This document shows, piece after piece, positions 4,204-13,962 of a stretch of DNA of 64,000 nt. Source of the DNA: Paracoccaceae bacterium (lineage in GTDB: Bacteria; Pseudomonadota; Alphaproteobacteria; Rhodobacterales; Rhodobacteraceae); the NCBI GenBank assembly GCA_024742695.1, contig JANSXY010000007.1, forward strand, positions 1 through 64,000, in the 5' to 3' direction. Position 1 is the first letter of the stretch. Each line of letters begins with the position of its first letter. The position numbers were made by a program, and so were the translations under genes. The notes beneath the pieces are model-generated. The model ran no database searches. It had not been told where the DNA came from and saw nothing but the letters and a program-made list of their open reading frames with translations.

Positions 4204-4935
4204 TCAGGCCCTGTCCCGCGCGTCAAGCCAGGCGCGGATGATCTCGCGGTGCCGGGCCGCGCCGTAGCTGGGAAAATGCCCGCCGTGCACGACCCGGACG
4301 GGCAGATCGGCCAGACGGACCATCGACCGGAAATAGTCGTCCGCGTTGGCGTGATAGGTGTCCTCGATCAGCGGGCCGTCGTAGACGATGTCCCCCGAGA
4401 ACAGGATGCCCGTCGCCGCCTCCCACAGCGCGATCCCGCCCGGCGAATGGCCCGGCGTATGGATGACCTCGAAATGCCGGTCGCCAAGATCGACGACGTC
4501 GCCGTCGTCCAGCAGGCGGGTCGCGGGCGCCGCCGCCACGCCGTAGGTGGCCGAGGCGTAGGGCAGGGGCGGCAGGCGGTCGAAGATCTCGTCGGTCACG
4601 TAGGGGTCGGCCAGCGTCGCCGCGCGCGTCGGATCGGCGAGAATGCCGGCCTCGGCCCGGTGCACCGCGCGATCCTCGAATTCGTGGTGGCAGCCGATAT
4701 GGTCGAAATGGGTATGGCTGGCCACGGCGGTCAGCGGCCGTTCGGTGACAAGCGGCACCCATTCGCGCAGCGACACCACGCCCATGCCGCTGTCGACCAG
4801 CATGTCGCGGTCGCGCCCGCGGACATGCCAGATGTTGCAGCGATAGAATTCCTGGATGAACGGTTCGTCGATGAAGGTCACGCCATCGTCCAGCCGGCGG
4901 GTGCGGTACCAGTCTTCGGGGCGCGCGCGCTCCAT
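4204..4935 (-). CDS. MBL-fold metallo-hydrolase
   Basis: The 243-residue protein has the metallo-beta-lactamase metal motif HTHFDH at about residues 74-79, then HTPGHS, FSGD and a late VVHGGH, which supply the other metal ligands. The ATG at 4935 follows GGAGGAG and lies 2 bases after the ABC ATPase stop, so this is the last gene of the transporter operon. The fold covers lactonases, thioesterases, glyoxalase II and others; nothing here fixes the substrate. Position suggests it acts on the imported compound or its product. A longer upstream frame exists but is antisense-like and Arg-rich, so I rejected it. Confidence 0.8.
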   Translation of the reverse strand: MERARPEDWYRTRRLDDGVTFIDEPFIQEFYRCNIWHVRGRDRDMLVDSGMGVVSLREWVPLVTERPLTAVASHTHFDHIGCHHEFEDRAVHRAEAGILADPTRAATLADPYVTDEIFDRLPPLPYASATYGVAAAPATRLLDDGDVVDLGDRHFEVIHTPGHSPGGIALWEAATGILFSGDIVYDGPLIEDTYHANADDYFRSMVRLADLPVRVVHGGHFPSYGAARHREIIRAWLDARDRA

Positions 4936-4937
4936 CG

Positions 4938-5978
4938 TCACTCCTCCAGGCGGTAGACGCGGAAGGCATGCGGCTCCGCGCCGAGATCGAGTTCCTGCCC
5001 CGCCGCGGGGGCGGCGCCCGGTGGCAGATGCGCCACCAGCACCAGTTCGGGCGCCGCGACGGGGACGAGGTGCGCGCGCCAATGGGTTCCGAAGAAGGCG
5101 GCATCCCGCACCCGCGCCCGGCCCAGCGCGACGCCGCCCGCTGCGAGGCCGATCGCCTCGGGGCGCAGGCAGACCATCGCACGGCCCCGCCCCAAGCCGT
5201 CAACCGGCAGCAGCCCCAGCGGGGTCTCGACGCCGGCGTCGGTCAGCGTGGCCGGAACATGGTTCATCTCGCCCATAAAGTCGGCGGTGAACAGCGTCGC
5301 CGGTTCGCGGTAGATGCGCACCGGCGCGCCCTCGTCCTCGATCCGGCCGGCATTCATCACCACGATCCGGTCGGCGATCGCCATCGCCTCTTCCTGGTCG
5401 TGCGTGACGTGGATGAAGGTCGTGCCGACCTGACGCTGGATCGCTTTCAGTTCGTCCTGCATCGCGCGGCGCAGCTTCAGGTCGAGCGCGCCCAGCGGTT
5501 CGTCGAGCAGCAGCACGTCCGGTTCCACCGCCAGCGCCCGGGCCAGCGCCACGCGCTGGCGCTGGCCGCCGGACAGTTCGTGCGGCCGCTTGCCCGCCGC
5601 ATCGGCCAGGCCGACCATGCCCAGAAGCGCTTCGGCCCGGGCATGGCGCACCCGGCGCGCGACCCCGGCCATCCGCAGCCCGAAGGCCACGTTGTCGCGC
5701 AGCGTCATGTGCGGAAACAGCGCGTAGTCCTGGAACATCGTCGTCGTGGGCCGCTTGGCCGGCGGCACATGCGTCATGTCCCGCCCGCCGATCAGGACCG
5801 CGCCCTCGGTCGGGTCCAGGAAACCGCCAAGGATCGACAGCAGCGTGGTCTTGCCGCAGCCGGAGGGGCCCAGCAGCGTCACGTATTCCCCCGCCTCGAT
5901 CCGCAGGTCGATGTCCTTGAGCGCGTGGAACGGGCCGAACCGGTGATTGAGCCCGGACAGGGTGACGGACGCGGTCAT
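4938..5978 (-). CDS. ABC importer ATPase, polyamine type (PotA-like)
   Basis: The 346-residue ATPase has Walker A GPSGCGKT (37-44), signature LSGGQ (135-139), Walker B VLLLDEP (about 155-161) and an H-loop HVTHD. After about residue 240 comes a TOBE-like domain, as in PotA and FbpC. It powers uptake through the two permeases encoded just upstream. Its ATG at 5978 overlaps the preceding permease stop by 4 bases (ATGA), so translation is coupled. The substrate is probably a polyamine or guanidino compound, given the divergent ureohydrolase gene, but that is inference. Confidence 0.9.
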   Translation of the reverse strand: MTASVTLSGLNHRFGPFHALKDIDLRIEAGEYVTLLGPSGCGKTTLLSILGGFLDPTEGAVLIGGRDMTHVPPAKRPTTTMFQDYALFPHMTLRDNVAFGLRMAGVARRVRHARAEALLGMVGLADAAGKRPHELSGGQRQRVALARALAVEPDVLLLDEPLGALDLKLRRAMQDELKAIQRQVGTTFIHVTHDQEEAMAIADRIVVMNAGRIEDEGAPVRIYREPATLFTADFMGEMNHVPATLTDAGVETPLGLLPVDGLGRGRAMVCLRPEAIGLAAGGVALGRARVRDAAFFGTHWRAHLVPVAAPELVLVAHLPPGAAPAAGQELDLGAEPHAFRVYRLEE

Positions 5979-6748
5979 GGGCGGCGTTTCCGGAAGACGA
6001 GGGTTTCGAGGATCACGACCGCCGTCACCGAGACCAGGAACACCAGGCTGCCGATCGCGTTCAGCCGCGGCGACAGGCCCGACCGCAGCATCGACCAGAT
6101 TTCGACCGGCAGCGTGACGTCGAAGCGGGTCAGCAGGAAGGCGATGATGAACTCGTCCCACGACAGCGTGACGGACAGGAAGAACGCCGCCGCGATCGCC
6201 GGCATCAGCATCGGGACGGTGACGAGCAGCACGACGCGCGCCTCGTCCGCGCCGAGGTCGCGGGCCGCACGCTCGGCGTTTACCTGCTGCGCGCCCATCG
6301 AGGCGTAGAGGATCGCGAAGGCGAGCGGCAGGTTGATCACGACATGCCCGATCGCCGCGGTCCACAGCGACAGGCCCAGGCCGGCGCGGGTCAGCACGAT
6401 CAGAAGGCCCAAGCCCACGATCAGGTAGCTGACCGTGAGCGGCGCGATCAGCAAGCCGCGCAGCAGGGCCGAGCCCGGCAGGACATGGCGCGCCAGCCCG
6501 TAGGCCGCGCCGAACCCCAGCGAAACGGCCACCGCGGAAGAGCCGAGCGCGACCAGAAGCGAGTTCGCCAGCGCGCCGGTCAGGTCGTCGTCGGCCAGCA
6601 CGTCGGCATACCACCGTGTTGACGGGCCGTTGAACGGCGGCACCGGCAGATTGCCCGCCTGGAAGGAAAACAGCACCAGCGCGCCGACCGGCAGATAGAT
6701 GAAGGCGAAGGCCGCCGCCAGGTAGAGCCAGGGCAGAAGGCGGATCAT
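5975..6748 (-). CDS. ABC importer permease, PotC-like
   Basis: The 257-residue protein has six predicted membrane segments and the EAA-type loop near residues 159-178 (ERAARDLGADEARV, then VTVPML), which docks on the ATPase. N-terminal Pro/Trp-rich features and length match PotC/YdcV permeases. It overlaps the genes on both sides by 4 bases (ATGA), placing it firmly in the operon of binding protein, permease, permease, ATPase and hydrolase. Confidence 0.9.
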   Translation of the reverse strand: MIRLLPWLYLAAAFAFIYLPVGALVLFSFQAGNLPVPPFNGPSTRWYADVLADDDLTGALANSLLVALGSSAVAVSLGFGAAYGLARHVLPGSALLRGLLIAPLTVSYLIVGLGLLIVLTRAGLGLSLWTAAIGHVVINLPLAFAILYASMGAQQVNAERAARDLGADEARVVLLVTVPMLMPAIAAAFFLSVTLSWDEFIIAFLLTRFDVTLPVEIWSMLRSGLSPRLNAIGSLVFLVSVTAVVILETLVFRKRRP

Positions 6749-7596
6749 AGCCGGTCGAGCCTGAGCCAGCGGGCGGAGGCGAGATAGGCCAGCGTCACGA
6801 TCCCCATCAGCACGATCGCCAGCGCCGAGGCGAGCGGGAAGTCCGCCCGCCGCCCCAGCTGCACCATGATGACCTGCGGCACCGTCAGCTCGGTGTTGCC
6901 GCCGAGGATCTGCGGCGTCACGTAATCGCCGATGCACAGCACGAAGGTCAGGAACGCCCCGGTGACGATACCTGGCAGGGCGAGCGGCAGGGTGACGTGG
7001 CAGAAGGTCTGGAAGGCGCTGGCGCCAAGATCCGTCGCGGCCCGGCGATAGTTCGGCGACAGCTGGATCAGGTTCGCGTAGATCGTCAGGGTCAGCAGCA
7101 TCACGAAGAAATGGACGAAGCCGGTGACGGTGGCGAACCGCGTATTGGCCAGCGTCACCGGCTCCGAGAGGAGGCCGAGGCCGAGCAGCGCCTGGTTCAC
7201 CACGCCCTCGCGCGCCAAAACCAGAAGCCAAGCGTAGGACCGCACCACATAGGATGTCCAGAACGGCAGGATCGCCAGCAACAGCGCCAGCCGCTGCCAG
7301 CGCGGCGGCACCCGGAACGCGATGATCGAGGCGAGCGGATAGGCCAGCAGCACCGAAACCACGGTCACGGTCAGCGTGATCTCGAGCGACACGAGGATCG
7401 CGCGCCACAGATAGGCCTTTTCGGTCAGCTCGGCGTAGTTCGCAAGCGACACGCCCCAGACCAGGGTCCGGCCCTCGAGCGTGGCAAGGCTCATCGCGCC
7501 CATCACCAGGAAGGGCACGACGAAGAAGGCGAGCGTCCAGATCAGGGCCGGGGCGACGAAGCCCCAGCCCCGCATGCGCTCGGCCCGCGCGGTCAC
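6745..7596 (-). CDS. ABC importer permease, PotB-like
   Basis: The 283-residue protein has six membrane segments and the coupling loop RRAATDLGASAFQTF followed by VTLPLALPGI. It pairs with the PotC-like permease to form the channel. The start is most likely the GTG at 7596, whose last bases overlap the TGA of the binding-protein gene (GTGA). The ATG at 7575 is the alternative and would remove 7 residues. The next gene begins inside its stop codon. Confidence 0.88.
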   Translation of the reverse strand: MTARAERMRGWGFVAPALIWTLAFFVVPFLVMGAMSLATLEGRTLVWGVSLANYAELTEKAYLWRAILVSLEITLTVTVVSVLLAYPLASIIAFRVPPRWQRLALLLAILPFWTSYVVRSYAWLLVLAREGVVNQALLGLGLLSEPVTLANTRFATVTGFVHFFVMLLTLTIYANLIQLSPNYRRAATDLGASAFQTFCHVTLPLALPGIVTGAFLTFVLCIGDYVTPQILGGNTELTVPQVIMVQLGRRADFPLASALAIVLMGIVTLAYLASARWLRLDRL

Positions 7597-8645
7597 TGCT
7601 GCAGCGTTTCCAGCCAGAGATCCTGCATCTCGATGTCGAGATCGGCATCGGGCGCGGGATAAAGCTGGCTGCGGGCCAGGTAGTCGGGCTGGCTGTCCCA
7701 GCGCAGGATCGCCTTCTGGTCCTCGCTCAGGAAGTCGCCGGCCTTGGCGTTGGCCGGCATGCCCCAGAAGCACGACGAGGTGGCCAGCCGCGCCTGGCCT
7801 TCGGGGCTGACGATGTATTTCACGAATTCGAGCGCCAGATCGGGGTTCTCGCTGCCGGCCACGACGCCGATCGACTGCGCCCAGCGCACCGCGCCCTGCT
7901 CCGGGATCGTCCAGGTTAGATCGGGCTGTTCGCCCGCCAGCACCGCCGTCAGCCATTCGCCGCCGCCGACGACGATATCCACCTCGCCGGTGGCAAGGGC
8001 CGTCTGCGCCGCGACGACGCCCGCGACCGAGGCCGCGCGCGCGCGCATCGTCGAAAGCACACCGCCGATCGTTTCCAGATCGTCGGGTCCGATGTCGGCG
8101 GTCGCGATGCCTTCGGCCATCGCGGCCAGCCCCATCACCGGCAGGTAGTAGTCGTAGATCGAGATCCGGCCGTCGTATTTCTCGGACCAGACGGTGGCGA
8201 GGTTCTCCATGTCGGCCGGATCGACCTTGGCGGCATTGTAGGAGATCGTGTTGTAGCCGAATTTCTCGGTCACCGCGTAGGTCACGCCGTCGACGCTGTT
8301 GTTCTCGGCCATCACGACCTCGGGAAAGAAGTCGCCGGTGGGCAGGTCGGCCGGATCGAGCGGCGCGAGGATGCCGGCCTCGACGGCGCGGAACACGTCG
8401 ATCCCGTCGATCACCAGGACGTCCCAGTCGCCGGGCCGCGACTGTTCCAGAAGCGCCAGCGCGGCGCCGGTGCCCTCGTATTCCCTCAGGTTCACCTTGA
8501 CCCCGTGCGCGGCCTCGAAGGGTTCGATCAGCGCCGGGTCGGTATGGTCGCACCAGACCAGCGCATTGAGTTCCTGGGCGTGCGCGGCGCCGGTCAGCGC
8601 GGTCGCGGCCGCGCTGGACAGAAGAAGGGCTGGCAGACGTGTCAT
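7593..8645 (-). CDS. Periplasmic substrate-binding protein, PotD/spermidine-putrescine type
   Basis: The 350-residue protein starts with a signal peptide (MTRLPALLLSSAAATALTGA, cleavage after AHA at about 23) and then LNALVWCDHTDPALIEPFEA, the usual opening of PotD-like binding proteins. The ATG at 8645 is preceded by GGGAG. It delivers the ligand to the two permeases encoded downstream. Ligand identity is unproven; the divergent TetR/ureohydrolase pair suggests a guanidino- or polyamine-like compound. It is the first gene of the operon, facing the operator at 8731-8760. Confidence 0.88.
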   Translation of the reverse strand: MTRLPALLLSSAAATALTGAAHAQELNALVWCDHTDPALIEPFEAAHGVKVNLREYEGTGAALALLEQSRPGDWDVLVIDGIDVFRAVEAGILAPLDPADLPTGDFFPEVVMAENNSVDGVTYAVTEKFGYNTISYNAAKVDPADMENLATVWSEKYDGRISIYDYYLPVMGLAAMAEGIATADIGPDDLETIGGVLSTMRARAASVAGVVAAQTALATGEVDIVVGGGEWLTAVLAGEQPDLTWTIPEQGAVRWAQSIGVVAGSENPDLALEFVKYIVSPEGQARLATSSCFWGMPANAKAGDFLSEDQKAILRWDSQPDYLARSQLYPAPDADLDIEMQDLWLETLQQ

Positions 8646-8730
8646 GTGTTCGCTCCCTGTGTGGTCGGCCCGGTTCGCGGGCCGGTCGTCCTGGGTCACG
8701 CCCGCGCGGGGCGCGGCCGGTTCAGAAAAA

Positions 8731-8760
8731 AGTTGAATTCACTCATGTTTGAAGTCAACT
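8731..8760. promoter_or_regulatory. Operator-like inverted repeat between transporter and TetR genes
   Basis: Arms AGTTGAATTC (8731-8740) and GAAGTCAACT (8751-8760) are complementary at 9 of 10 positions around a 10-base spacer. The minus-strand sequence TTGACT (8758-8753), a good -35 for the transporter operon, lies inside the right arm. Size and placement suit a TetR-family dimer that could control both divergent units. This is AT-rich against its surroundings. Confidence 0.6.
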
Positions 8761-8799
8761 CTATTTTCCAGCTGTTCCTCAACCGTCCCGACCCGTTCC

Positions 8800-9426
8800 A
8801 TGACCGGCTTGCGCGCCAAACAGAAAGCTGACCGCGAAAGACGCATTCTGAAGGCGGCGGTGACGCAATTTCGGGCAGAGGGCTATCGCTCGGTCCGAAT
8901 CGAGGACCTGGCCGAAATGGCCGAGGTCTCGGTCGGCACGGTGTACAACTACTACCAGACCAAGGGCGACATCCTGATCGCGACGGTCGCGATGGAGGTC
9001 GAGGAGGTGCTGGCCTCGGGCGCGGCGATCGTCGCGGACCCGCCGCGCGGGGTCGAGGCGGCGCTGCTCGCGCTGATCTTCCAGTACTACGACCACTCGC
9101 TCGAATACCTGTCGAAGGAGATGTGGCGCAACGCGATGGCGTTGTCGATCGAGGCGCCGGGAACGCCGAACGGCCGGCGCTACACCGAGTTGGACAGCCG
9201 TCTGGCCGCGCAGGTCACCGACATGATCGTCGCACTGCAGGCGCGCGGCGAGGTGCGGCGCGATATCCTTGCCGGGCCGCTCGGGCAGCTCGTGTTCAAC
9301 AACCTCAACCAGATGTTCATCGAGTTCGTGAAGGACGACGCCATGTCGTTGCAGGCGCTGCGCGACGCGGTCGCGGCGCAGACCCGGCCGCTGGCCCGGC
9401 TCATTTCGACGGAAGGATCACGATGA
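8800..9426 (+). CDS. TetR-family transcriptional regulator
   Basis: The 208-residue protein carries the TetR DNA-binding domain at about residues 10-57 (RRILKAAVTQF, then RIEDLAEMAEVSVGTVYNYY), followed by a ligand-binding helical domain. The ATG at 8800 gives the normal family length; an upstream TTG at 8749 would add an unlikely Ser-rich leader and cover the operator. Its stop overlaps the ureohydrolase ATG (ATGA). It is divergent from the ABC importer, so it probably represses both units until the imported compound or a product binds. Confidence 0.88.
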   Translation: MTGLRAKQKADRERRILKAAVTQFRAEGYRSVRIEDLAEMAEVSVGTVYNYYQTKGDILIATVAMEVEEVLASGAAIVADPPRGVEAALLALIFQYYDHSLEYLSKEMWRNAMALSIEAPGTPNGRRYTELDSRLAAQVTDMIVALQARGEVRRDILAGPLGQLVFNNLNQMFIEFVKDDAMSLQALRDAVAAQTRPLARLISTEGSR

Positions 9427-10370
9427 CCCGGTTCAACCAGCCCCTCGGCGGCAACGAGATGCCCCGCTTCGGCGGCCCGGCGACGATGATGCGGCTGCCG
9501 GCCCAAGCCACGGCGGAGGGCCTCGACGCCTGTTTCGTCGGCATCCCGATGGATATCGGCACGTCGAACCGGTCCGGCACCCGGCTGGGTCCGCGCCAGA
9601 TCCGTGACGAAAGCCGGATGCTGCGGCCCTACAACATGGCGACGCGGGCCGCGCCGTTCGACAGCCTGCAGGTCGCCGATATCGGCGACGTGCCGATCAA
9701 CACCTTCGACCTGAAGAAGTCGGTCGACATCATCACCGCGCAGTACCGCGACATCCTCGGTCACGGTGCGATCCCGCTGACGCTGGGCGGCGATCACACG
9801 CTGACCTGGCCGATCCTGCGGGCCGTGAAGGACCGGCACGGCCCCGTCGCGTTGATCCATGTCGATGCCCATGCCGACATCAACGAGCACATGTTCGGCG
9901 AGACGGTGGCGCATGGCTGCCCGTTCCGCCGCGCCTGGGAAGACGGGTGCCTGCAGAACGACAAGGTCTTCCAGATCGGGCTCCGCGGCACCGGCTACGC
10001 GCCCGAGGATTTCGACTGGGGCCGCGACCGGGGCTGGACCGTCGTGCAGGCCGAAGAGTGCTGGTACAGGTCGCTCGCCCCGCTGATGGAAAGGGTGCGC
10101 GCGGTCGTCGGCACGGCCCCGGTCTACCTGTCCTTCGACATCGACAGCCTCGACCCGGCCTTCGCGCCGGGGACCGGCACGGTCGAACCGGGCGGGCTGA
10201 CGACATGGCAGGCCCTTGAAATCGTGCGCGGATGCGCCGGGCTGAACCTTGTCGGCTGCGATCTTGTCGAGGTCTCGCCGCCCTATGATCCGTCCGGCAA
10301 CACCGCGCTGATCGCGGCGAACCTGCTGTTCGAGATGCTGTGCGTCCTGCCCGGCGTCGCGCGGGGCTGA
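9423..10370 (+). CDS. Agmatinase-family ureohydrolase
   Basis: The 315-residue protein has the full arginase/agmatinase manganese set: GGDHT, DAHADI and SFDIDSLDPAFAPG, with TGTVEPGG after it. The family hydrolyses guanidino compounds (agmatine, guanidinobutyrate, guanidinopropionate, guanidine) to urea plus an amine or ammonia. Coupling to a TetR gene and divergence from a polyamine-type importer fit uptake and use of an external guanidino compound. I cannot choose between agmatine and other substrates from sequence alone, so no symbol is given. Confidence 0.85.
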   Translation: MTRFNQPLGGNEMPRFGGPATMMRLPAQATAEGLDACFVGIPMDIGTSNRSGTRLGPRQIRDESRMLRPYNMATRAAPFDSLQVADIGDVPINTFDLKKSVDIITAQYRDILGHGAIPLTLGGDHTLTWPILRAVKDRHGPVALIHVDAHADINEHMFGETVAHGCPFRRAWEDGCLQNDKVFQIGLRGTGYAPEDFDWGRDRGWTVVQAEECWYRSLAPLMERVRAVVGTAPVYLSFDIDSLDPAFAPGTGTVEPGGLTTWQALEIVRGCAGLNLVGCDLVEVSPPYDPSGNTALIAANLLFEMLCVLPGVARG

Positions 10371-10407: not shown

Positions 10408-11244
10408 TCAGTCGCAGATGTCGGCGACGGATTTCTTCACCGCCTCGATCTCGAACACCGCGTCCAGCCAATCGTCTCGGAAGATGACCGACTTGGCGTT
10501 CTCGATCGCCAGCAGCGCGCCGTCGGAAAACTTGCCTTCCGGGAAGATGCCGAAGGCGATGGCCAGTTCGATCTTCAGGTGGCCGAGGATGAAGTCATGC
10601 GCCGCGGCTTTTGGCACGCCCATCGCCACCGCACGGTCGGTCGCCTCGCGCAAGGCCAGCGAAAACGTGGCCCCGACCGTCTCCGACAGCGCGGGTTCGA
10701 GGATCGCGATGTCCTGCAGCGTGCAGCGATGCGCGCGGGCGACCGGCGCGTAGATCAGCCGCGCGATCTCCTCGCAGGCCGCGTAATGCTCTTCCGGCCC
10801 CTGGATCAGGGCGCAGACGATGCCCTGCGGCCCGGCGATGCCCCCGAAATAGTCGCGTTGCGCGGCAAGGTCGGCCGTCACCTCGAAGATGTTGGGGTGG
10901 CAGGGATGGGTGCAGAAATAGGTCACGTCGGGCCGGTCGGGCATCCGGCCGGCGAAGGGCGCCGCGGCATCCAGCACGATGACCGCCGCGCCGGGCTTGA
11001 CCCGATCGATGAAACCCGCCGCGATCTGGCCGATCAACCGGTCGGGCACCGCCATCACGATCGCGTCGGCATCGGCCAGCGCGTTGTCGGCGGGCACGGT
11101 CTCGAGGCCCAGTTCCGCCCTGAGACGGTCCTGCCCGGCCGGCGACACCTCGACATGGTCGACGTCGAACCGCGACCCCATCAGGTTGCGTGCCAGCCGC
11201 ACCCCCATCTTGCCGCCGGCCCCCAGAAGCGCGATCTTCTCCAT
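10408..11244 (-). CDS. apnO: D-apionate oxidoisomerase-like NAD-binding enzyme
   Basis: The 278-residue protein has an N-terminal Rossmann fold (ALLGAGGKMG at 5-14) and a C-terminal helical domain of the phosphogluconate-dehydrogenase-like type (THPCHPNIFEV, then KAAAHDFILGHLKIELAIAF). Proteins of this form act as ApnO, turning D-apionate into 3-oxo-isoapionate, in the pathways described for D-apiose use. The gene lies 1 base after a DUF1537 kinase gene, itself overlapping a RuBisCO-like gene; this trio is the reason for the call. GGGGAGGA precedes the ATG at 11244. No ApnL lactonase or apiose dehydrogenase gene is adjacent. Confidence 0.72.
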   Translation of the reverse strand: MEKIALLGAGGKMGVRLARNLMGSRFDVDHVEVSPAGQDRLRAELGLETVPADNALADADAIVMAVPDRLIGQIAAGFIDRVKPGAAVIVLDAAAPFAGRMPDRPDVTYFCTHPCHPNIFEVTADLAAQRDYFGGIAGPQGIVCALIQGPEEHYAACEEIARLIYAPVARAHRCTLQDIAILEPALSETVGATFSLALREATDRAVAMGVPKAAAHDFILGHLKIELAIAFGIFPEGKFSDGALLAIENAKSVIFRDDWLDAVFEIEAVKKSVADICD

Positions 11245-11245
11245 C

Positions 11246-12625
11246 CTAGTCCTCCCCGGCGGTCCCGCCGCCACGCTTGATCCAACCAAAGTAATCGGGG
11301 CTGCCCATCTGTCCGCCCTTGAGCGCGATCTGCAGTCCGTCCATCGCCGGGTCGTCCGACCAGGCCTGCAGGAGCGCCGCGCCCGGTGTCGTGGGCGCGA
11401 GTGCGGTGAAGGCGAAAAGCCCCAGTTCCCGCGCCGCATGGCCCGAGGTGTCGCCACCCGAGATCACCACGCGGCCCAGCCCGGTGCGCCGGACCAGCCG
11501 TGCCACGATCCGGCCCAGCGCGGCGCCGATCCGTTCGCCCGCCGCTTCCGGCGCGATCCCGGTCGCATCCAGCGCCCTGCGCAGGGCCGCGACGGCCGCA
11601 TCGTCGGGGCCACGGGCCGTGCAGATCAGCGGGTCGCGGCCGCGCCCCAGCGCGTCGAGCGCCGCCGCTTCCGCCGCCGCTTCCGCCCCCGCATCGCCCC
11701 GCGCCACCGCGGCGGCATCGAGGCCGATAACCTCGAACCCCTCCGCCGCCGCCCGATCGATCTGCGCCGCCGTTACCGGTGACACCGACCCCGAGACCGC
11801 CAGCATCCGCCGGACCGGCCCCGCGCCGGGCGTGGCGGGTTCGGGCGGGATCAGCCCGGCGGCGCGCCAATGCGCGATCAGCGCGTATTCCACGCCTTGC
11901 GAGCCGACCGCGAGCAGCGGCGCGCGCGCCTGCCAGATCAGCCGGCCATTGGTTTCCATGTGCGGCCCGGTCAGCGCGTCGAGCGCGATCACCTCGCAGC
12001 CCTCGGCCCGCAGGCCGGCCAGCGCCGCCTCCGCGTCGGCCTCCAGCGCCTCGATGTCGATCAGGCCGAAACTGCGGGCGGTCTGCCGGGCAAGGTGGCG
12101 CGTCACCTCGGCCTCGTCCATCGGGGTCGCGGGGTGGCGGGCCATCACCGGGTGCCGATCCAGCCGGAAGACCCCGCCGGGGGCCGAGGCGAAGAGATTG
12201 CCGAAAACCTGGTAGCGCCGCATCACCGGCGCGGCGACGAGGCAGGGCACCCAGGGGCTGCCGACGATCTCTTGCCCGATGTCGATCGCCGCGCCGATCG
12301 ACCCCAGCCGCGGCGCGGAATCGAGGGTGGAGCAGGTCTTGTAATGCACCACCGGCGCGCCGGTTTCGGCCAGGCTGGCGAACAGCCGGGGCAGTTCCGC
12401 CGCCATCCACTCGGGCGTCTGCGCCCGCGCGGTGGTGGCGACGCCGATGCCGCGCAGGCCGGGAAACCGCGCCAGGCGCTCCGGTGTCGGCGCGTCGAGG
12501 AACAGCGCCGCGGGCAGGCCGGCGAAGGCCAGCGCCTCCATCACCGCCGCCGATCCGGTAAAATCGTCGCCCAGCCAGGCGACGAGCGGGCCGTCGGGCA
12601 GCCCGCCTGCCTGGCCGGCGTTCAC
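11246..12625 (-). CDS. oiaK: DUF1537-family four-carbon/branched sugar acid kinase, OiaK-like
   Basis: The 459-residue protein has the DUF1537 N-terminal motif LGDDFTG and the C-terminal nucleotide-binding region with VVISGGDTSGHAA and LKGGQMG. The family phosphorylates sugar acids such as erythronate, threonate and 3-oxo-isoapionate. With ApnO-like and RuBisCO-like partners in one operon, 3-oxo-isoapionate 4-phosphate is the likely product. The start is the GTG at 12625, overlapping the stop of the RuBisCO-like gene (GTGA). Confidence 0.72.
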   Translation of the reverse strand: MNAGQAGGLPDGPLVAWLGDDFTGSAAVMEALAFAGLPAALFLDAPTPERLARFPGLRGIGVATTARAQTPEWMAAELPRLFASLAETGAPVVHYKTCSTLDSAPRLGSIGAAIDIGQEIVGSPWVPCLVAAPVMRRYQVFGNLFASAPGGVFRLDRHPVMARHPATPMDEAEVTRHLARQTARSFGLIDIEALEADAEAALAGLRAEGCEVIALDALTGPHMETNGRLIWQARAPLLAVGSQGVEYALIAHWRAAGLIPPEPATPGAGPVRRMLAVSGSVSPVTAAQIDRAAAEGFEVIGLDAAAVARGDAGAEAAAEAAALDALGRGRDPLICTARGPDDAAVAALRRALDATGIAPEAAGERIGAALGRIVARLVRRTGLGRVVISGGDTSGHAARELGLFAFTALAPTTPGAALLQAWSDDPAMDGLQIALKGGQMGSPDYFGWIKRGGGTAGED

Positions 12626-13872
12626 CGGAACCGCCTCAGCGCGGCGGCCAGCGCCGGATGGTCGCGGGCGTAATCTTCGGCAGGAACGCCGGCCATCGCG
12701 GCCTCCCAGGCCTCGCGCAGGCTGCGGACGCCGGCGGCGGGGCCGTCGGGGTGCCCCATGATCCCGCCGCCCGCGGCATGCAGGCAATCGGCGCTGCCCA
12801 GCTTGCGGTAGGTATCGGCCGCCTGCACCGCGGTCTGGCCCGAGGAGAAGACCGGCATCGCGCGGCACGGCTTCTCGGCGAAAAGCGGCTCGCCCAGCGA
12901 CCGGGCCGAGGCGATCACGCTCTCGTCGCTTTCGCTGAACTTGTTGGACAGCCCGTTGACATGCATGTGGTCGGCCCCGGCCAGCCGCCAGAGTTTCGAC
13001 CAGGCCGGGTAGGACCAGCCTAGAAGCGGCGCGCGCGACAGCGCGCCCCAGCCGTTGCGATGGGCATGGATCGGCAGTTCGCTGTGCCGCGCGAGGGCGA
13101 GGAACCCCGACAGCCCCACCGAGTTCAGGCTGACCATCACGCAGGTGCCGCCCAGATCGCGCACCATGTCGTGCCGGCGGCGCATGTCGTCGATCTCGCC
13201 GGTCAGGTTGGCGGCGTACATCACCCGCTTGCCGGTGCGATGGGCATGGGCGTCAAGCACCGACAGCACGGCGCGCACGCGATCCCCGAACGGGCAGGCC
13301 GGGCCGTTGGCCTGCAATTCGTCATCCTTGATGAAGTCGATCCCCGCCGCCGCAAGGTCGCCGGCCAGTGCCGCCGTCTCGTCGGGCGACAGGCCGACGC
13401 TGGGCTTGACGATCGTGCCGATCACCGGCCCGGCCCCGATCCCGCACAGCCGTTTCGTGCCGTCGGCGCCGAAGCGCGGGCCGGGTCCGGCCGCGGCGAA
13501 GCCGGGCGGCAGGCGGATGTCCTCGACCCGGAGGCCCGAGAATTCCCGCAACTCGAAGAGGTTGCCGGCCAGCGTCACCATCAGGTTGGGCAGGTCCGGC
13601 CCGATGTTTTCCAACGGCCAGGACAGCGTCAGCCGCGCCCGGCGGTAGCCCTGGCCGCGATCCGCCATGACACAGGGCAGCGACGGCTGCCGTGCCGGCG
13701 CTTCTTCCTCCAGCCGTTCGACCCGCGCCGCGGCGCGGTCGCGCAGCGCCGCCGTCTCGCCGGGCAGGGCGACGAAGGTGCCCGAGGATTGTTCGCCGGC
13801 CATGACCTCGGCCGCGCGGGCGGGGTCGATCGGCGTTTCGATCAGGTAGTCGCATTCGATCCGGTCGGTCAT
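12622..13872 (-). CDS. RuBisCO-like protein, 3-oxo-isoapionate-4-phosphate cleaving type (OiaT/OiaX)
   Basis: The 416-residue protein keeps RuBisCO large-subunit landmarks: TIVKP (K156), the metal-binding KDDE (K182-E185, with the carbamylated-Lys position), HRNG (H271), HMHVNG (H302), K311 and SSGQ (S344), then GGG (368-370). The second Lys of the KPK motif is replaced by Ser158, so this is a RuBisCO-like protein and not a carbon-fixing enzyme. In apionate pathways such proteins either decarboxylate 3-oxo-isoapionate 4-phosphate (OiaX) or split it hydrolytically to 3-phosphoglycerate and glycolate (OiaT). No erythrulose-phosphate isomerases are near, which mildly favours OiaT. Confidence 0.75.
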   Translation of the reverse strand: MTDRIECDYLIETPIDPARAAEVMAGEQSSGTFVALPGETAALRDRAAARVERLEEEAPARQPSLPCVMADRGQGYRRARLTLSWPLENIGPDLPNLMVTLAGNLFELREFSGLRVEDIRLPPGFAAAGPGPRFGADGTKRLCGIGAGPVIGTIVKPSVGLSPDETAALAGDLAAAGIDFIKDDELQANGPACPFGDRVRAVLSVLDAHAHRTGKRVMYAANLTGEIDDMRRRHDMVRDLGGTCVMVSLNSVGLSGFLALARHSELPIHAHRNGWGALSRAPLLGWSYPAWSKLWRLAGADHMHVNGLSNKFSESDESVIASARSLGEPLFAEKPCRAMPVFSSGQTAVQAADTYRKLGSADCLHAAGGGIMGHPDGPAAGVRSLREAWEAAMAGVPAEDYARDHPALAAALRRFR

Positions 13873-13947: not shown

Positions 13948-13962
13948 TAAACAGCTTGTTTA
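13948..13962. promoter_or_regulatory. Palindrome upstream of the RuBisCO-like operon
   Basis: TAAACAGCTTGTTTA is a perfect inverted repeat (6-base arms, 3-base centre), 76 bases upstream of the operon start at 13872 and just beyond the convergent end of the neighbouring gene. It stands in a short AT-rich patch. It looks like an operator, but no regulator gene is adjacent. Confidence 0.4.

What the first reader, a model, noticed from the sequence alone, without database searches (positions are those of the whole stretch)
10408..13872. Compact apionate operon built on a RuBisCO-like protein
Three overlapping or near-overlapping minus-strand genes encode an ApnO-like oxidoisomerase, a DUF1537 kinase and a RuBisCO-like protein with KDDE intact but the second Lys of KPK changed to Ser. 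Known apionate pathways combine these families. Here there is no lactonase, transporter, regulator or erythrulose-phosphate isomerase next to them, so the operon is a minimal form. It probably ends at 3-phosphoglycerate and glycolate, which would make the RuBisCO-like protein OiaT and not OiaX.
Basis: partly seen in the sequence, partly recalled or inferred. Interest (0 to 1): 0.65.

Follow-up and report, generated by a model that had tools for sequence, protein, structure and literature searches.

The report
OiaT-type D-apionate catabolic operon
Three adjacent genes very probably break down the plant sugar acid D-apionate, using a relative of RuBisCO that makes 3-phosphoglycerate and glycolate; this is an ordinary, widespread form of a pathway already known, and the earlier steps are encoded elsewhere in the same genome.

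Summary
In detail: an intact minus-strand operon encodes a RuBisCO-like protein (RLP), a DUF1537 kinase and an ApnO-like oxidoisomerase. KDDE is intact and KPK reads KPS. The only non-RuBisCO RLP found in Xanthobacter autotrophicus Py2, the reported source of OiaT, is 59-60% identical and shares the window's clade. NCBI-labelled OiaX proteins are 43-45% identical and form a separate clade; an AU test rejects joining the window to them (p = 4e-5). Like Py2, the window protein keeps RuBisCO residues E60, N123, H327 and S379; all 14 OiaX-clade proteins have lost them. No TIM/RpiB-type isomerase lies near any of 84 OiaT-clade loci. 'Minimal form' is not special: 25 of those 84 loci show only RLP, kinase and ApnO of the pathway genes tested, and the Py2 cluster also lacks a lactonase. 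The window's own genome carries a D-apionate lactonase homologue overlapping an apiose-dehydrogenase-like gene on another contig, and glycolate-oxidase-like genes, so the pathway looks complete but split. Verdict: new member of a known kind, of modest interest. Every catalytic step is inferred from sequence.

The parts
12622..13872 (-). RuBisCO-like protein, predicted OiaT (3-oxo-isoapionate-4-phosphate transcarboxylase/hydrolase), 416 aa
   Evidence: PF00016 3e-63; 59-60% identical to the only non-RuBisCO RLP of X. autotrophicus Py2; same clade; keeps E60/N123/H327/S379 equivalents E30/N107/H307/S346, K177 is S161
11246..12625 (-). DUF1537 kinase, predicted 3-oxo-isoapionate kinase OiaK; GTG start overlaps the RLP stop (GTGA)
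   Evidence: NF042436 OiaK 491 bits, next best 3-oxo-tetronate kinase 157; kinase tree; junction
10408..11244 (-). D-apionate oxidoisomerase ApnO-like protein, 278 aa
   Evidence: PF16896 1e-57; 71-72% identical to the ApnO of ApnL-containing clusters; ATG one base after the kinase stop
13948..13962 (-). upstream inverted repeat TAAACAAGCTGTTTA, possible operator
   Evidence: partly conserved upstream of the Rhodovulum robiginosum orthologue, which has a divergent LysR gene; function not tested

Best explanation
The operon encodes the lower half of the D-apiose/D-apionate pathway of the OiaT type. ApnO oxidises D-apionate with NAD+ and moves its hydroxymethyl group to give 3-oxo-isoapionate. 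OiaK phosphorylates that with ATP to 3-oxo-isoapionate 4-phosphate. The RLP (OiaT), with Mg2+ and presumably a carbamylated K185, decarboxylates it, recarboxylates the resulting enediolate at the neighbouring carbon, then hydrates and cleaves the product to 3-phosphoglycerate and glycolate. D-apionate is supplied by an apiose-dehydrogenase-like enzyme and a D-apionate lactonase encoded on another contig; glycolate probably goes to glycolate oxidase. Shown here: gene identity, clade, residues and genomic co-occurrence. Inferred: all catalysis (reaction chemistry from general knowledge of the Carter et al. 2018 pathway), flux and regulation.
For: X. autotrophicus ATCC BAA-1158 (Py2) is the reported source of the transcarboxylase/hydrolase RLP (PMC6302742). 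Its genome, identified by a 100% match to pXAUT01, has one non-RuBisCO RLP, 60% identical to the window's, beside ApnO and an OiaK above cut-off. Trees join window and Py2 apart from OiaX; AU test p = 4e-5 against window with OiaX. Active-site signature shared with Py2, absent in OiaX. No TIM/RpiB isomerase in 84 OiaT-clade loci. ApnL and Gfo/Idh homologues elsewhere in the genome.
Against: The window kinase and RLP are below NCBIfam equivalog cut-offs (491/700 and 446/700). Identity to Py2 OiaT is only 59-60%. About 12 of 84 OiaT-clade loci carry an SDR, nearly all of them without ApnO, so the clade may serve more than one substrate. That the Py2 RLP is the assayed OiaT rests on a review plus its being the only candidate; the primary paper could not be read.
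Confidence: 0.82

Rival explanations
1. The RLP is an OiaX: it only decarboxylates 3-oxo-isoapionate 4-phosphate to erythrulose phosphate, which unlinked isomerases convert further.
For: OiaX is its best NCBIfam model (446 bits); kinase and ApnO occur beside OiaX too.
Against: The Py2 RLP scores the same on that model (431 bits). Separate clade and AU rejection. OiaX proteins have D/G/Q/(G or C) where window and Py2 have E/N/H/S. No isomerase gene near any OiaT-clade locus, 2 of 9 for OiaX.
Confidence: 0.07
2. An OiaT-like enzyme acting on a different 3-oxo sugar-acid phosphate, so that the operon degrades an acid other than D-apionate.
For: Some loci of the clade have an SDR or erythronate/threonate genes nearby; identity to the reference is about 60%.
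Against: The window has an ApnO 71-72% identical to ApnO of ApnL-containing clusters, and the genome has ApnL and apiose-dehydrogenase homologues 61% and 77.5% identical to those of an RLP-kinase-ApnO cluster.
Confidence: 0.09
3. A methionine-salvage enolase (MtnW), a 2QYG-type RLP or a true RuBisCO.
For: It belongs to the RuBisCO large-subunit superfamily and keeps most active-site residues.
Against: MtnW structures score 111-145 bits and 2QYG 216, against 417 for 3NWR; 2QYG-like proteins and RuBisCOs fall outside the clade; K177 is Ser; neighbours are an ApnO and a sugar-acid kinase.
Confidence: 0.01

Closest known systems
ApnO-OiaT-OiaK cluster of Xanthobacter autotrophicus Py2 (ATCC BAA-1158)
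   Same: The same three families side by side; RLP 59-60%, ApnO 52% and kinase 46% identical; identical active-site residues at all 16 positions compared; no lactonase or isomerase gene in the cluster.
   Different: Py2 order is ApnO-OiaT-OiaK with an MFS transporter upstream and a divergent LysR gene; the window order is OiaT-OiaK-ApnO with neither.
OiaX clusters (e.g. Rhizobium sp. TAL182, S. meliloti; activity reported for A. radiobacter K84)
   Same: RLP plus DUF1537 kinase, often ApnO, in apiose/apionate clusters.
   Different: RLP only 42-45% identical, separate clade, E60/N123/H327/S379 replaced; TIM and RpiB isomerases beside it in TAL182.
ApnL-Gfo/Idh-NanR-RLP-OiaK-ApnO cluster of Rhodobacteraceae bacterium SC52 plasmid
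   Same: RLP-kinase-ApnO in the same order; its lactonase and Gfo/Idh are the closest fetched relatives of the window genome's unlinked pair (61% and 77.5%).
   Different: There all these genes plus a NanR-type regulator are together; in the window's genome they are on two contigs.

Membership tests
OiaT (3-oxo-isoapionate-4-phosphate transcarboxylase/hydrolase) | Groups with the Py2 RLP and not with OiaX | tested here: met
   AU p = 4e-5 against window plus OiaX
OiaT (3-oxo-isoapionate-4-phosphate transcarboxylase/hydrolase) | Active-site residues as in the Py2 RLP (RuBisCO-like except K177S) | tested here: met
   All 16 positions compared are identical to Py2
OiaT (3-oxo-isoapionate-4-phosphate transcarboxylase/hydrolase) | Encoded with ApnO and OiaK | tested here: met
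OiaT (3-oxo-isoapionate-4-phosphate transcarboxylase/hydrolase) | Makes 3-phosphoglycerate and glycolate | not testable with these tools
   Needs an enzyme assay
OiaX (3-oxo-isoapionate-4-phosphate decarboxylase) | NF042437 score at or above the curated cut-off of 700 | tested here: not met
   446 bits
OiaX (3-oxo-isoapionate-4-phosphate decarboxylase) | D/G/Q/(G or C) at the E60/N123/H327/S379 positions, as in all 14 OiaX-clade rows | tested here: not met
   Window has E/N/H/S
OiaK (3-oxo-isoapionate kinase) | NF042436 score at or above the curated cut-off of 700 | tested here: not met
   491 bits; best model by far but below the cut-off, so membership is by tree and context
ApnO (D-apionate oxidoisomerase) | Orthologous to ApnO-position proteins of clusters with ApnL and Gfo/Idh genes | tested here: met
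   71-72% identity to L167 and L054
D-apiose pathway in this genome | ApnL lactonase present | tested here: met
   NF049900 591 bits on contig C40 (below the cut-off of 750), overlapping a Gfo/Idh gene
MtnW / methylthioribulose-type RLP | Nearest to MtnW or 2QYG-type RLPs | tested here: not met
   MtnW models 135-166 bits against OiaX 446; 2QYG group outside

The most novel reading that the evidence does not exclude
The OiaT clade keeps nearly the whole RuBisCO active site, residues from both domains included, with K177 replaced by Ser, while OiaX has lost much of it. Members of this clade might therefore carry out a measurable net carboxylation of an enediol phosphate with free CO2, or retain the ancestral activity from which RuBisCO's carboxylation arose.
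Probability: 0.08. Interest if true: 0.75.

Novelty: new member of a known kind. Interest (0 to 1): 0.3.

Why it matters
A RuBisCO relative can here be assigned to a specific known reaction, while the only matching curated model (OiaX) would point to the wrong one. The four-residue difference between the OiaT and OiaX clades offers a simple, testable rule for telling transcarboxylase/hydrolase from decarboxylase among the many RLPs now called 'ribulose-bisphosphate carboxylase large subunit family protein'. It also shows that absence of a lactonase beside such an operon does not mean its absence from the genome.

Tried and rejected
Carter et al. 2018 is not in the paper library, so OiaT was anchored through a review and the Py2 genome. 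A genome cannot be used as search centre through a locus id, so Py2 was found by matching plasmid pXAUT01 DNA across its family. A shared operator between the operon and the unlinked lactonase locus was sought and not found. Window neighbours (MR/MLE enolase homologue, TRAP binding protein, arginase-family gene, MBL hydrolase, Pot-type binding protein) were considered as pathway parts and rejected because they are not conserved beside related operons. In one search three RuBisCO rows were wrongly counted in the window's clade; one search replaces those counts. No structure prediction was run because the fold and family are clear from sequence.

Full report
What is there. Three intact minus-strand genes form one compact unit: an RLP (12622-13872), a DUF1537 kinase (11246-12625) and a PGDH_C-domain oxidoreductase (10408-11244). 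The RLP stop and kinase start share GTGA, and the oxidoreductase ATG follows the kinase stop after one base. Pfam and NCBIfam matches are far beyond chance. The RLP has KDDE at 185-188 and KPS at 159-161.

Which RLP it is. NCBIfam has a model for OiaX; none for OiaT turned up. The window scores 446 bits against a cut-off of 700. That is no evidence for OiaX, because the Py2 RLP scores 431 on the same model. A review states that the RLP of Agrobacterium radiobacter K84 decarboxylates 3-oxo-isoapionate 4-phosphate and that of Xanthobacter autotrophicus ATCC BAA-1158 (Py2) does the transcarboxylation/hydrolysis (PMC6302742). It holds one non-RuBisCO RLP, 59-60% identical to the window's, lying between ApnO and an OiaK that passes its equivalog cut-off at 811 bits. 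Proteins of the NCBI-labelled OiaX clade are 42-45% identical. Three trees put the window with Py2 and the OiaX proteins in their own fully supported clade; forcing the window into OiaX costs 86 log-likelihood units (AU p = 4e-5). In the careful tree some branches around the window-Py2 group have moderate support (91/80), so the exclusion of OiaX is firmer than the inner branching.

Active site. RuBisCO's site includes Glu60, Thr65 and Asn123 of one subunit's N-terminal domain and Lys175, Lys177, Lys201, Asp203, Glu204, His294, Arg295, His327 and Lys334 of its neighbour's barrel (PMC5786004). In 101 OiaT-clade rows E60 and N123 are kept in all, H327 and S379 in all but one gapped row, and K177 is always Ser. 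In all 14 OiaX-clade rows the four positions are D, G, Q and G or C. My reading is that a transcarboxylase must place and stabilise a new carboxylate and so keeps the carboxylation residues, while a plain decarboxylase need not. This is inference, but it fits the two reported activities.

Context. In 84 OiaT-clade loci of at least 11 kb, a kinase is within reach in 77, ApnO in 61, a lactonase homologue in 27 and a Gfo/Idh gene in 23; TIM or RpiB isomerases in none. In 9 OiaX-clade loci isomerases occur in 2. Loci are related and partly cut by contig ends, so these are descriptive counts. The 649-aa neighbour was identified as ApnL by NF049900 at 636 bits. Twenty-five of the 84 loci have RLP, kinase and ApnO without lactonase, Gfo/Idh, SDR or isomerase, so the window's compact form is the commonest one, and Py2's own cluster lacks a lactonase too.

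The rest of the pathway. The window's own genome has an ApnL homologue (591 bits, cut-off 750) overlapping a Gfo/Idh gene on contig C40 (L215:10369-13112, minus strand). They are 61% and 77.5% identical to their counterparts in the SC52 plasmid cluster, where lactonase, dehydrogenase, regulator, RLP, kinase and ApnO lie together. GlcD-like proteins occur on several contigs, the best at 445 bits (cut-off 568) with a further partial match just downstream, as expected of a GlcD-GlcE pair. So apiose, apionolactone, apionate, 3-oxo-isoapionate, its 4-phosphate, then 3-phosphoglycerate plus glycolate has a candidate gene for every step, split over two loci. No transporter was identified. A growth study of another Rhodobacteraceae strain reports D-apiose use with a cluster annotated as lactonase, dehydrogenase, ApnO, kinase and RLP (PMC11747546).

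Kinase and ApnO. The kinase's best model is OiaK (491), with 3-oxo-tetronate kinase at 157 and D-threonate kinase at 77, and it groups with OiaK-type kinases away from OtnK-like ones. Its nearest relatives include kinases of both OiaT and OiaX clusters, so the kinase does not discriminate between the two routes. ApnO is 71-72% identical to ApnO of ApnL-containing clusters.

Verdict. The claim of a distinctive minimal operon does not survive: it is a common arrangement, and the missing upstream genes are elsewhere in the genome. All catalytic statements remain predictions.

Noticed in passing
L176, L177, L188, L209-L212: The clade of PDB 3NWR (19 rows): an RLP next to a VOC-family protein in 7 of 7 loci, usually with a DUF1537 kinase, a TRAP transporter and a LacI regulator, and no ApnO; K177 is Asn while E60/N123/H327/S379 are kept. 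Looks like a different, unassigned RLP pathway.
   Followed up: partly
L052, L078, L085, L086, L091, L173, L186: About a dozen OiaT-clade or near-clade loci have an SDR dehydrogenase, most of them in place of ApnO, with LysR and TRAP or other transporters: a possible variant pathway for another sugar acid.
   Followed up: partly
L057, L059, L061, L067: RLP-kinase-ApnO units sit beside D-erythronate/L-threonate genes (DenD, LtnD, OtnI, OtnC) and a 2-hydroxyacid dehydrogenase.
   Followed up: no
L175 and L174: The family reaches haloarchaeal plasmids (RLP-kinase-PGDH_C) and the Bacteroidota plasmid of Rufibacter tibetensis, next to pectin-degrading genes.
   Followed up: no
window 4204-10370: Pot-type ABC transporter, MBL hydrolase, TetR regulator and agmatinase-family gene next to the operon, probably an unrelated amine-catabolism locus.
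   Followed up: no
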